From the NCBI GenBank assembly GCA_041623475.1, contig JBFJWU010000216.1:1-5983 (forward strand): a DNA stretch of 5,983 bases, written 5' to 3'. This stretch comes from JBFJWU01 sp041623475 [NCBI: bacterium]. Its GTDB lineage: Bacteria; J088. This document shows, in pieces, positions 2,021 to 5,677 of this stretch. The notes under the pieces are model-generated. The model searched no databases. It was not told where the DNA came from and saw nothing but the letters and a program-made list of their open reading frames with translations. The translations under genes and the position numbers were made by a program. Position 1 is the first letter of the stretch. Every line of letters begins with the position of its first letter.

Positions 2021-2836
2021 TCACGTCTCCAGCCACTTGCGGACCCGCGCTGGTCCGATCGTCTCGCCATCGCGTTTCATTTCCTGGACGATCTGGTCAA
2101 CACGCCACCCCTGTCCATGTAGCTCGGCGACTTTTCGTCGGCGCCAGCGGGATCGGCGCATTTTGCACGCATCTCCGCACCAACGCTGATCGGACCGTGT
2201 GGCAACAAAGACCCGTCCGCACATCGAGCACTGACAAGGCGCGACCATACCGCCGTGTTCCCTGGCCAGGCAAAACCATGCCGCAGCCAGAAGGCCCCTG
2301 GGTTGCCATTGGACGGATTTGTTGTCCATCACCAGCCGTCCGAACAAACGGCTGGTAATGGTTTGATCGAGGTCGCCGTCGGCAATGGTTTCCGAACCAG
2401 CAGCGGCCCAGGCCCTTTGATGTTTTACGTCCATGTGGTCGATTGCACGGCGCAGCGCATCCAGTTCCTGTCGCCACAAAGCGACGGGTTCACAGGCAAC
2501 AACCCTGGCGACTGTCCCGTGCGTGGGAGGAACGACATTTCGGACCAGTGGAACATTCAGGAAACCAAAATACTCCACTGCGCGCGCGATCGAAGGTGGA
2601 TCTGGTGGTATTGCGGCCAGATCCCTGTGAAGCCCGGGAATCGCGAGACTGTCATAGGCGACAAATCCGGGCAGGTTATGGCCCGATCCCGGATTCGCCA
2701 GTACCCTGCGGACATTCAACTGGTCCTCGTGGTCCGGAAGCCCAATTACGGTCAGCGGATTGCTGGCCCCGTCCCAGGCCTCCATAATTCGGGGCAATTC
2801 AGCCGGCCGATACCATGTCCCGTCCAGCGTGATCAT
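2021..2836 (-). CDS. Uncharacterised zinc-ribbon protein with basic C-terminal helix-turn-helix-like tail
   Basis: The ATG at 2834-2836 gives 271 residues; CAAAGG lies three bases upstream, a weak and rather close ribosome site. No signal peptide or membrane segment is visible, so it is probably cytoplasmic. Residues 1-115 have no motif I recognise. Residues 115-195 are mostly helical. Then comes a zinc-ribbon signature C-x2-C-x13-C-x3-C (Cys203, Cys206, Cys220, Cys224), with Arg-Trp before the third Cys, loosely like CGNR-type zinc fingers. An arginine-rich stretch (227-235) follows. Residues 236-271 then resemble a helix-turn-helix of the recombinase or regulator type (A-E-L-H-G-Q-G, then I-V-Q-E-M, ending V-R-K-W-L). 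This C-terminal half points to nucleic-acid binding. The gene stands alone downstream of two palindromic sites, which could be its own operators; that link is inference. No catalytic motif is seen. A regulator, or an accessory protein of a mobile or phage-derived function, are both possible. Confidence 0.84.
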   Translation of the reverse strand: MITLDGTWYRPAELPRIMEAWDGASNPLTVIGLPDHEDQLNVRRVLANPGSGHNLPGFVAYDSLAIPGLHRDLAAIPPDPPSIARAVEYFGFLNVPLVRNVVPPTHGTVARVVACEPVALWRQELDALRRAIDHMDVKHQRAWAAAGSETIADGDLDQTITSRLFGRLVMDNKSVQWQPRGLLAAAWFCLAREHGGMVAPCQCSMCGRVFVATRSDQRWCGDACKMRRSRWRRRKVAELHGQGWRVDQIVQEMKRDGETIGPARVRKWLET

Positions 2837-2874
2837 AAGCCTTTGCCATCATTTAGAATTTCTATTGCCAGCAT

Positions 2875-2905
2875 TTTATACTATGTCCGTTTTCAATTTC
2901 TTCAA
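2875..2905 (-). promoter_or_regulatory. Candidate sigma-70-type promoter of the zinc-ribbon gene
   Basis: Read on the minus strand, TTGAAG (2900-2905) is followed after 16 bases by TAGTAT (2878-2883), or after 19 bases by TATAAA (2875-2880), so a -10 element of reasonable quality sits at a usable distance. Transcription would start around 2866-2872, leaving a leader of roughly 30-35 bases before the ATG at 2836. The inner palindrome begins 13 bases upstream of the -35 hexamer, a position where activators often bind. The call rests on consensus matching by eye. Confidence 0.4.
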
Positions 2906-2918
2906 GACAACAAACATC

Positions 2919-2948
2919 GTTACGTTAAAAGTATCACGAAAACGTAAC
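2919..2948. promoter_or_regulatory. Palindromic site 1 (GTTACGTT-N14-AACGTAAC), probable operator
   Basis: A perfect 8-bp inverted repeat (2919-2926 with 2941-2948) flanks a 14-base AT-rich centre. Half-site centres are 22 bp apart, about two helical turns, which fits a protein dimer bound to one face of the DNA. The same half-sites with the same overall length of 30 bp recur at 3039-3068; aligned, the two sites agree at 25 of 30 positions and the differences all lie in the centre. A GC-poor stem without a following T-run argues against a terminator. The site is centred roughly 65 bases upstream of the predicted start of the zinc-ribbon transcript. The binding protein is unknown. Confidence 0.72.
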
Positions 2949-3036
2949 ATGATCAAGCAGTACTTTAAAGGGTTGCCCTGAAAGGGAAATTCCGAGATTG
3001 CCGGGAGTCTGTCGGACTGTCAGAGTGGCGTCCAAC

Positions 3037-3070
3037 TCGTTACGTTTAAAGCATTATAAAAACGTAACGA
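3037..3070. promoter_or_regulatory. Palindromic site 2, longer arms, same half-sites as site 1
   Basis: The inverted repeat here is perfect over 11 bp (3037-3047 with 3060-3070) around a 12-base centre; its 30-bp core (3039-3068) matches site 1 in half-sites and spacing. The cores start exactly 120 bp apart. Read on the minus strand, the centre contains a perfect TATAAT (3053-3058) but I see no matching -35 hexamer at 16-19 bases. If this is a second promoter, it would depend on an activator or be covered by a repressor. The stronger symmetry suggests this is the higher-affinity site. Sequence symmetry is seen directly; function as an operator is inferred. Confidence 0.72.
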
Positions 3071-3227
3071 CGCGACGTTTCGGCATCACCGTATCCGGCC
3101 TCTGGTGCCGCAATGTCCCGTGTTGAAAGTGAATAGCGGCCAAAGGTCCCTGCCAAGCCTCAACATGGTGCTTGATAAACTGGACTCGTTCGCCAGCAGG
3201 TGCAATGTCGGGCGCCGGTCGTGGCCG

Positions 3228-3593
3228 TCAGTTGGCCAGAATGCCCTGGACTTTGCGAGTGAAGGACTCGGGATCGTCGCCCTTGCAAATAAACCCGTCG
3301 GCCTCGGCGGCCTGGGACAATTTTGCCAGTTCTTCTTCGGGCTTGGCCGAGTAGAGGACAATCTTGGTCCGGGCTGCACTTTGCAGCTGTTTGAGCTTGC
3401 GGGTTGTTTCGGCCCCGTTTTCGGCACCCATCTCCACATCCATCAGGACCAGATCGGGATGGAAAATATCGAGAAGGTGGGTGATCCAGACCGTTTCAGC
3501 CGTCAGGACGCTGTATCCTGCAGACTCCAGCGCATCCTTGGTCCAACCGAGGATAAAACTGCTGTCATCAACCACCATAATCCGCTGTTTCAT
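3228..3593 (-). CDS. Stand-alone CheY-like response-regulator receiver, 121 residues
   Basis: This is a complete single receiver domain with no output domain. All signature residues are present: the acidic pair Asp9-Asp10 after the first strand (R-I-M-V-V-D-D), phospho-acceptor Asp52 in D-L-V-L-M-D, the switch Ser82 after K-I-V-L-Y, and the conserved Lys104 in F-I-C-K-G. It should therefore accept phosphate from a histidine kinase, which is not encoded nearby, and act through protein contacts, since no DNA-binding part exists. I choose the ATG at 3591-3593, which places the first strand at residues 3-8 as usual for the family and has GGAGGG eleven bases upstream. A TTG at 3623 would add ten residues without benefit. 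It follows the permease gene on the same strand after 39 bases, so the two are probably cotranscribed. The partner kinase and target are unknown. Confidence 0.93.
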   Translation of the reverse strand: MKQRIMVVDDSSFILGWTKDALESAGYSVLTAETVWITHLLDIFHPDLVLMDVEMGAENGAETTRKLKQLQSAARTKIVLYSAKPEEELAKLSQAAEADGFICKGDDPESFTRKVQGILAN

Positions 3594-3603
3594 AGGCTTA
3601 TGG

Positions 3604-3614
3604 GCCCTCCGGGC
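3604..3614 (-). promoter_or_regulatory. Ribosome binding site of the receiver gene, inside a small hairpin
   Basis: On the minus strand GGAGGG (3605-3610) is the only strong Shine-Dalgarno sequence before the ATG at 3593; the eleven-base distance is somewhat long. Its three-G end pairs with the preceding GCCC in a 4-bp stem (GCCC-gga-GGGC) that could partly hide the site. It supports the ATG at 3593 over the upstream TTG. The hairpin is short and its effect is uncertain. Confidence 0.4.
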
Positions 3615-3632
3615 AGTCCCCAAAATTCCATT

Positions 3633-4564: not shown

Positions 4565-5677
4565 ATGAGCGAACCGATACGCATTGACCGCTGGGTCGAC
4601 GACAATATTTTGCGGGTCGACCGGGAACCCGGGAAATCCGCCAAACCGGCCGATGAGTTCCAGCAGCAGTTGGTACGTGATGGTGTTCACTTCATGGTCT
4701 CCCTGTTGGGTGAGGCCCGTGGAATTGCTGCCGCGGGGCCGGGATGGCTCGGCGAAGTGCTGCGCAACGGTTTCTATCCGGATCATATGACCTTCCGGAA
4801 GTTGCCCTACCTGCCCGAACGCGCGGATCTGAAAATGCTAAAAGCCAAAAACCCGGACTGGACATTCCGGGAGGACTTTGATCCCCGACGGTGGGTTTTC
4901 GTTTTCCTGCACGGTTACATTGATAATACAGGTGCCGACCGGATTGCCTTTAAGCTGGCCAGCCTGGGTTACCAGGTTTACCTGGTTCGTTACCCGTTCC
5001 TGCGCAATGTCCGCCGGACAGCAGGGGAATTAAGCGAAATATTGCAGCAGATCAGCCGGCGCGAGCGCGGCAAGCGCCTGGTACCGATCGGGCACAGCCT
5101 GGGGGGGTTCGTCTGGGACCATCTGCTGCTGCACCGACCCGACATCGCCGAGCAATACAATATGCCGTTGTATATCCCACTTGGCAGTCCGCATTTCGGG
5201 ACACTGGCCGCGTTCCTCGGCGTCGGTCAGAGTGCCAAGCAGATGCAGCCCACAAGTGACGTGGTCCTGGAACATCTGAATCGAAAATTCCCGAAGGACC
5301 TTGAAATATATCCTTTTGTCAGTCGATTCGACCTGCTCGTTCTGCCAATCGAGACCGCATTACTGAAACGTGGCGTCAACTACCTGCTTTCAGAAACCGG
5401 CCACATCGGGCAGGTTGTCAAGAACGAAGTCGTCCAGTCCATCGAGGAAATAATCGCGACACCACCGGAGCTCCTGAAGCAGCGGGCGGAGCGACGAAAG
5501 TTTTACCTGTCCAGCCTGGCAAATCTGTTGCGGCGGTTGCCTGCAAAGACCCGCAAACGCCTGGGAGTCGACGGCGTTTTGAATTACGTTGGTGCCAACG
5601 ATACAACGACCGAATTCGATGTCCGAATCGTGCATCATGAACTTCGCCTGGGGCTGATCCCGCCGCTTCGACGTTAA
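4565..5677 (+). CDS. Alpha/beta hydrolase (lipase/esterase-like) with C-terminal basic extension
   Basis: Counting from the ATG at 4565 the protein has 370 residues. The fold's key elements appear in order: a strand ending in H-G (116-117, oxyanion region) in V-F-V-F-L-H-G-Y; the nucleophile elbow G-H-S-L-G-G with Ser178; P-L-G-S-P-H-F-G-T at 205-213, typical of PGAP1-like and triacylglycerol-lipase-like esterases; Asp256 in S-R-F-D-L-L-V; and His280 in T-G-H-I-G. The catalytic triad is thus complete and ester hydrolysis on lipid-like substrates is likely. No signal peptide is seen, so it is probably cytoplasmic or membrane-associated. An N-terminal region of about 100 residues and a C-terminal one from about 300 (rich in Arg and Lys, with L-A-N-L-L-R-R-L) flank the core and may bind membrane or partner. 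In-frame ATGs at 4532 and 4427 would extend it; the latter reads deep into the divergent permease gene and lacks a plausible N-terminus. No clear ribosome site precedes any candidate. Confidence 0.93.
   Translation: MSEPIRIDRWVDDNILRVDREPGKSAKPADEFQQQLVRDGVHFMVSLLGEARGIAAAGPGWLGEVLRNGFYPDHMTFRKLPYLPERADLKMLKAKNPDWTFREDFDPRRWVFVFLHGYIDNTGADRIAFKLASLGYQVYLVRYPFLRNVRRTAGELSEILQQISRRERGKRLVPIGHSLGGFVWDHLLLHRPDIAEQYNMPLYIPLGSPHFGTLAAFLGVGQSAKQMQPTSDVVLEHLNRKFPKDLEIYPFVSRFDLLVLPIETALLKRGVNYLLSETGHIGQVVKNEVVQSIEEIIATPPELLKQRAERRKFYLSSLANLLRRLPAKTRKRLGVDGVLNYVGANDTTTEFDVRIVHHELRLGLIPPLRR

What the first reader, a model, noticed from the sequence alone, without database searches (positions are those of the whole stretch)
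2919..3068. Two matched 30-bp palindromes exactly 120 bp apart upstream of an uncharacterised DNA-binding-like gene
Both sites carry GTTACGTT and AACGTAAC half-sites with identical 14-base internal spacing; site 2 extends the symmetry to 11 bp per arm. All five differences between them fall in the centre, the pattern expected if a dimeric protein contacts only the arms. Site 1 sits just upstream of a plausible promoter; site 2 covers a perfect TATAAT on the minus strand. 120 bp is about 11.4 helical turns, so a tight DNA loop is not obviously phased but is possible. I do not recognise this half-site as belonging to any regulator I know.
Basis: partly seen in the sequence, partly recalled or inferred. 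Interest (0 to 1): 0.6.

Follow-up and report, generated by a model that had tools for sequence, protein, structure and literature searches.

The report
Paired palindromes upstream of regulator-like gene
Two nearly identical 30-base mirror-symmetric DNA sites sit upstream of a gene for a probable DNA-binding protein; they are very likely docking sites for a paired regulator protein, an ordinary kind of switch whose owner is still unknown.

Summary
GTTACGTT-N14-AACGTAAC occurs exactly twice in the window (2919-2948 and 3039-3068, 120 bp apart). Nothing else in the window comes within 4 mismatches. None of 1000 whole-window shuffles, and 1 of 5000 shuffles of the intergenic region, has any 8-bp-arm palindrome twice with the same arm and gap. 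Both sites lie in the 391-bp gap upstream of a minus-strand gene (2836-2021), whose product ends in a Cys4 knuckle plus a probable helix-turn-helix. The half-site centres are 22 bp apart, about two turns, so they lie on one DNA face. BirA, NikR and Desulfovibrio ModE-type operators have similar layouts, but those consensus sequences do not fit. Best explanation: a pair of operators for a dimeric factor controlling this gene, possibly autoregulation by its own product (untested). The relaxed pair has no match in genome contigs or viral contigs, and one neighbouring protein found no close relative in genome contigs, so the lineage is probably unsampled and that absence is weak evidence. Verdict: a real, probably ordinary regulatory feature with an unassigned regulator.

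The parts
2919..2948 (.). Site 1: GTTACGTT-N14-AACGTAAC, 8-bp arms
   Evidence: Exact match
3039..3068 (.). Site 2: the same motif; symmetry extends to 3037-3070 (11-bp arms)
   Evidence: Exact match
3053..3058 (-). TATAAT hexamer inside site 2; -35 partners poor (CCGAAA, 19-bp spacer, or GAAACG, 17-bp spacer)
   Evidence: no standard promoter hit
2875..2905 (-). Weak promoter-like pair TTGAAG-19-TATAAA between site 1 and the gene
   Evidence: 9 of 12, non-standard spacer; 0 hits
2837..3227 (.). Intergenic region (391 bp, 48% G+C, falling to 31% over 2850-2949) holding both sites
2021..2836 (-). 271-aa protein: N-terminal part of unknown fold, Cys4 treble-clef-like knuckle, C-terminal helix-turn-helix-like end; probable DNA-binding regulator and the likely target gene
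   Evidence: ORF; phrog_12986, E 1.8e-5, residues 199-240; C-terminal model confident; Z 5.8 to a phage small terminase, 43 residues, rmsd 1.1; codon score weakly positive in this frame and negative in the other five

Best explanation
The two sites are a pair of operators for one dimeric (or dimer-of-dimers) transcription factor. Each subunit reads one GTTACGTT half-site. The two half-sites of a site are 22 bp apart centre to centre, about two turns, on one face, and the A/T-rich centre is largely uncontacted. The controlled gene is the minus-strand gene at 2836-2021, perhaps with the 1891-1280 gene downstream. Site 1 lies just upstream of the weak promoter nearest the gene. Site 2 covers a TATAAT on the same strand, so occupancy would block that hexamer and/or help or hinder the nearer promoter. 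Shown: the sites, their rarity, their place and the DNA-binding-like product. Inferred: that a protein binds them, the direction of regulation, and which protein it is. The gene's own product is the simplest candidate, at about 0.4.
For: Exact paired motif far above chance. Both copies lie in the one intergenic region upstream of a gene for an HTH-like protein; the 8-mer half-site occurs nowhere else in the window. Similar wide-spaced layouts are described for known regulators: BirA TTGTAAACC-[N14/15]-GGTTTACAA, NikR GTGTTAC-[N13/14]-GTAACAC, and the Desulfovibrio ModE-type CGGTCACG-[N14]-CGTGACCG (PMC545781, passages). A paper on proteobacterial regulons says negative autoregulation of regulator genes is common (PMC5343134, passage). 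No terminator-like site is found around the sites.
Against: No orthologous region could be compared, so conservation is not shown. The relaxed pair gave no match in genome contigs or viral contigs. The standard promoter scan finds nothing. The centres share a same-orientation likeness (9 of 14) that a purely symmetric dimer site does not need. 120 bp is not an integral number of turns. The HTH call rests on a model made without an alignment, and unrelated PEX14 chains score almost as high (Z 5.0).
Confidence: 0.72

Rival explanations
1. Recombination-type core sites: two inverted arms of about 11 bp around an 8-bp asymmetric centre, bound by a tyrosine-recombinase-fold protein, either as att/dif-like sites or as operators of a recombinase-derived regulator. 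The Desulfovibrio 8-N14-8 motif lies upstream of molybdate genes whose cluster includes a gene fusing a phage-integrase domain to molybdate-binding domains.
For: Site 2 is 30-34 bp with 11-bp arms. The centre likeness is directional (9 of 14 same orientation against 4 of 14). Paper precedent PMC545781 (passage). A serine recombinase-DNA complex is among the listed fold matches of the regulator-like protein (2r0q, Z 4.8, rmsd 5.5), but weakly and of the other recombinase class.
Against: No recombinase among the 7 window proteins scanned with Pfam. The two centres differ at 5 of 14 positions, which would hinder crossover between them. The relaxed pair has no match in genome contigs or viral contigs.
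Confidence: 0.1
2. The repeats are a chance or duplicated remnant of a small palindromic mobile element (MITE or IS200/IS605-like hairpin ends) of 150 bp.
For: Two palindromes in the same orientation at the ends of a 150-bp stretch; sharp 32-bp repeat boundary; both strands can form hairpins, and the 158-nt stretch as single-stranded DNA folds better than all 200 shuffles (z -3.25).
Against: No transposase among the 7 window proteins scanned. By eye no target duplication. Loops of 12-14 bases are larger than those I recall for IS200/IS605 ends. No blastn match in plasmids or phages; no near-identical single site in viral contigs and no relaxed pair in viral contigs or genome contigs.
Confidence: 0.08
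3. They act in RNA, as terminator or leader hairpins.
For: Both fold as hairpins on both strands (-8.4 to -13.9 kcal/mol, z -0.9 to -3.4). Two of the four viral single-site matches (L002, L004) are followed by T-runs and look like terminators.
Against: Any gapped palindrome folds this way. No terminator-like site is found in 2700-3300 and by eye no T-run follows either site. No Rfam match in the window. The 236-nt minus-strand leader does not fold unusually well (z -1.3, 19 of 200 shuffles as good).
Confidence: 0.06

Closest known systems
BirA operators (TTGTAAACC-[N14/15]-GGTTTACAA; PMC545781, passage)
   Same: Wide inverted repeat, short arms, 14-15 bp centre, a repressor site upstream of its target
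   Different: Half-site sequence unrelated: at least 8 of 18 mismatches near the sites; no biotin gene seen among the families of the 7 window proteins
NikR operators (GTGTTAC-[N13/14]-GTAACAC; PMC545781, passages)
   Same: Wide inverted repeat, and a GTTAC block in each arm
   Different: The GTTAC blocks are 20 bp apart here against 13-14; at best 5 of 14 mismatches near the sites
Desulfovibrio ModE-type sites (CGGTCACG-[N14]-CGTGACCG; PMC545781, passage)
   Same: Identical geometry, 8-N14-8
   Different: Best match near the sites has 5 of 16 mismatches and is not in register with them (3062); no molybdate gene among the 7 window proteins
ABATE / CGNR zinc-finger regulators (Jann_2411, PMC2954205, passages)
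   Same: For the protein: N-terminal domain followed by a treble-clef-like Cys4 zinc finger; dimer with a putative DNA-binding site proposed there
   Different: No Pfam match to ABATE or zf-CGNR listed, and an extra C-terminal HTH-like end; I know of no operator for them (recalled)

Membership tests
NikR operator | GTGTTAC-[N13/14]-GTAACAC (or the reversed N13 form) | tested here: not met
   Best near the sites 5 of 14 mismatches
BirA operator | TTGTAAACC-[N14/15]-GGTTTACAA | tested here: not met
   Best near the sites 8 of 18 mismatches
ModE operator | ATCGNTATATA-N6-TATATANCGAT or CGGTCACG-N14-CGTGACCG | tested here: not met
   9 of 20 and 5 of 16 mismatches at best near the sites
ABATE/CGNR regulator (gene 2021-2836) | Pfam ABATE PF07336 and zf-CGNR PF11706 | tested here: inconclusive
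   Neither listed at a limit of E 10, where the filters drop most matches above about 0.1 (C-terminal piece); Cys4 knuckle present by sequence; N-terminal model not usable (residues 22-200 under pLDDT 50)
Operator of a dimeric regulator (general) | Inverted repeat in an intergenic region upstream of a gene, above chance | tested here: met
Operator of a dimeric regulator (general) | Conserved in orthologous upstream regions | not testable with these tools
   No genome held; no relatives found in the scans made
Operator of a dimeric regulator (general) | Binding by a protein | not testable with these tools
   Needs a gel shift or DAP-seq
Intrinsic terminator | GC-rich stem followed by a T-run | tested here: not met
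   0 found in 2700-3300

The most novel reading that the evidence does not exclude
The sites are the autoregulatory operators of a new family of regulators: an N-terminal sensor domain of unknown fold, a treble-clef knuckle and a C-terminal HTH, reading GTTACGTT half-sites two turns apart. As far as I know this would be the first operator assigned to a protein of that build.
Probability: 0.35. Interest if true: 0.45.

Novelty: new member of a known kind. Interest (0 to 1): 0.3.

Why it matters
If the pair is bound by the neighbouring protein, it gives a ready, testable operator for an uncharacterised treble-clef/HTH protein. Otherwise it is one more operator pair whose regulator is unassigned. 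It does not change how we think regulation works.

Tried and rejected
Relatives: the host genome is not held. The relaxed paired motif gave 0 in genome contigs and 0 in viral contigs; since the window itself fits that pattern, its own contig is not in those collections. The hydrolase 4565-5677 gave no relative in genome contigs (51 stretches matched a seed, none confirmed; seeds are exact 8-residue peptides, so only close relatives are reached); in plasmids it has 1 partial match at 30% identity. The regulator-like protein gave none in viral contigs (6 seed matches, none confirmed), none in plasmids or phages at E 0.01, and no PDB sequence match better than E 0.44. Its 96-residue C-terminal piece at E up to 10 has weak matches only: 8 plasmid records (best E 0.2; some annotated as helix-turn-helix protein or Tn4555 TnpA) and 91 phage records (20 listed, best listed E 0.07); the lowest-E ones cover only the knuckle. 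Pfam on that piece lists NinG, Terminase_5, DUF2116 and DUF6076, each under its cut-off. The EamA protein gave none in viral contigs (10 seed matches, none confirmed) and 4 Azospirillum plasmid records at about 30% identity. The intergenic DNA (2700-3400) gave none in plasmids or phages.

The single exact motif has 4 viral matches. From: L001 lies inside an ORF; L002 and L004 are followed by T-runs; L003 sits just before a start with a ribosome-site-like stretch (and inside a small opposite ORF). Within 3 mismatches, 3 of the 4 records have no second copy; G002 (L002) has one with 3 mismatches about 2.5 kb away. I treat all four as unrelated.

An attC-like reading (AACGTAAC-N90-GTTACGTT) was rejected: the recalled GTTRRRY core is not met by GTTACGT. 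A dif-like reading was set aside because the arm register differs by eye (recalled consensus).

Papers: the two half-site words are in 514 papers (40 listed). I saw the listing only, except two bacterial ones, where all shown places are primers. Searches for a 14-bp-spacer operator and for treble clef plus HTH operator returned no paper. TunR, a recombinase-derived regulator, is recalled only: the search found no paper and an identifier tried from memory is not held. The listings (IS200/IS605, tyrosine recombinase) were not read further.

Foldseek on the whole low-confidence model gave nothing under E 0.001. In the VIA-align table (199 chains aligned, 92 at Z 2 or more, one row per entry, 50 shown) most shown rows fall in residues 213-271. 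All shown Z are under 6, and the near-tied rows include trypanosome PEX14 domains, so the HTH reading may be only a common-arrangement match.

Full report
The pattern is real. GTTACGTT-N14-AACGTAAC is present exactly at 2919-2948 and 3039-3068 and nowhere else in the window within 4 arm mismatches. The repeat is 32 bp with sharp edges. Site 2 is symmetric over 11 bp per arm and site 1 over 8 bp. Chance does not explain it: 0 of 200 shuffles have two such matches; 0 of 1000 whole-window shuffles and 1 of 5000 intergenic-only shuffles have any 8-bp-arm palindrome (gap 0-30) twice with the same arm and gap. The second test is corrected for choice of motif and the third also for the local A/T content. 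Two unlike palindromes in the same stretch would be less remarkable: 62 of 5000 intergenic shuffles have two or more centres.

Anatomy. Both sites lie in 2837-3227, between the end of a stand-alone response-regulator receiver gene (3228, minus; PF00072) and the ATG of a 271-aa minus-strand gene (2836). I see no credible plus-strand gene start near, so the only obvious target is that gene. G+C falls to 31% over 2850-2949. A standard sigma-70 scan finds no promoter in 2700-3300. Relaxing the spacer gives TTGAAG-19-TATAAA between site 1 and the gene and a TATAAT at 3058-3053 inside site 2 with a poor -35. Half-site centres are 22 bp apart, about 2.1 turns, so a dimer could read both from one face. 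The sites are 120 bp apart, 11.4 turns, so a stiff loop is not phased.

The product. Pfam gives nothing at the 0.01 cut-off for the whole protein and only NinG, under its cut-off (E 0.095). NCBIfam lists only two chance-like matches far under their cut-offs. PHROGs shows a weak zinc-knuckle match at residues 199-240 (phrog_12986, E 1.8e-5; 14 families at E up to 1). A model without alignment is poor overall (mean pLDDT 45.7) but confident at the C-terminus: hairpin, long helix, two helices. The last 43 residues match a phage small-terminase chain (Z 5.8, rmsd 1.1), with PEX14 domains close behind (Z 5.0) and FlhDC, AhrC and Fur-type regulators at about Z 3-4; Z under 8 may mean only a common arrangement. 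The build resembles ABATE/CGNR proteins, which were proposed to be dimeric DNA-binding regulators (PMC2954205, passages read), but no Pfam match to those families is listed. The codon score favours this frame only weakly (0.095 per codon, the other five frames negative).

Comparison with known operators. Passages of PMC545781 give BirA, NikR and Desulfovibrio ModE-type consensus sites with 13-15 bp centres; the last has exactly 8-N14-8. Tested directly, none fits these sites. So the geometry is familiar and the half-site is unassigned in what I could search.

Alternatives. A terminator is not found and there is no Rfam match. Both sites can form hairpins and the stretch folds well as single-stranded DNA (z -3.25), as any pair of palindromes would. 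No mobile-element or recombinase family was found among the 7 window proteins scanned, and 2700-3400 has no match in plasmid or phage records. The directional likeness of the two centres (9 of 14 against 4 of 14, P about 0.02) is a small point in favour of recombinase-type sites or of a past duplication, and I cannot explain it further.

Limits. No host genome is held. The relaxed pair has no match in genome contigs (described as 84,980 species) or viral contigs, and one window protein found no close relative in genome contigs. This shows that the exact pair at about this spacing is not widespread, but it does not test conservation in the host's own lineage.

Noticed in passing
1280-1891, minus: A gene starting at a GTG (1891) with a lipoprotein-like signal (by eye ...LILLLVAGC) follows the regulator-like gene on the same strand after about 130 bp and may be co-transcribed; no Pfam match at E 0.01.
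   Followed up: no
3228-3623, minus: A stand-alone receiver-domain protein without an output domain (PF00072) sits just upstream of the intergenic region; as it has no DNA-binding domain it is an unlikely owner of the sites.
   Followed up: partly
L002 7434-7463 and L004 16-45: Two viral contigs carry the same 8-N14-8 motif followed by T-runs, so they look like terminators; by eye L004 has an integrase-like ORF nearby at 521-1588 (not tested).
   Followed up: partly
2927-2940 against 3047-3060: The two 14-bp centres are alike in the same orientation only (9 of 14 against 4 of 14), which a purely symmetric dimer operator would not need.
   Followed up: partly
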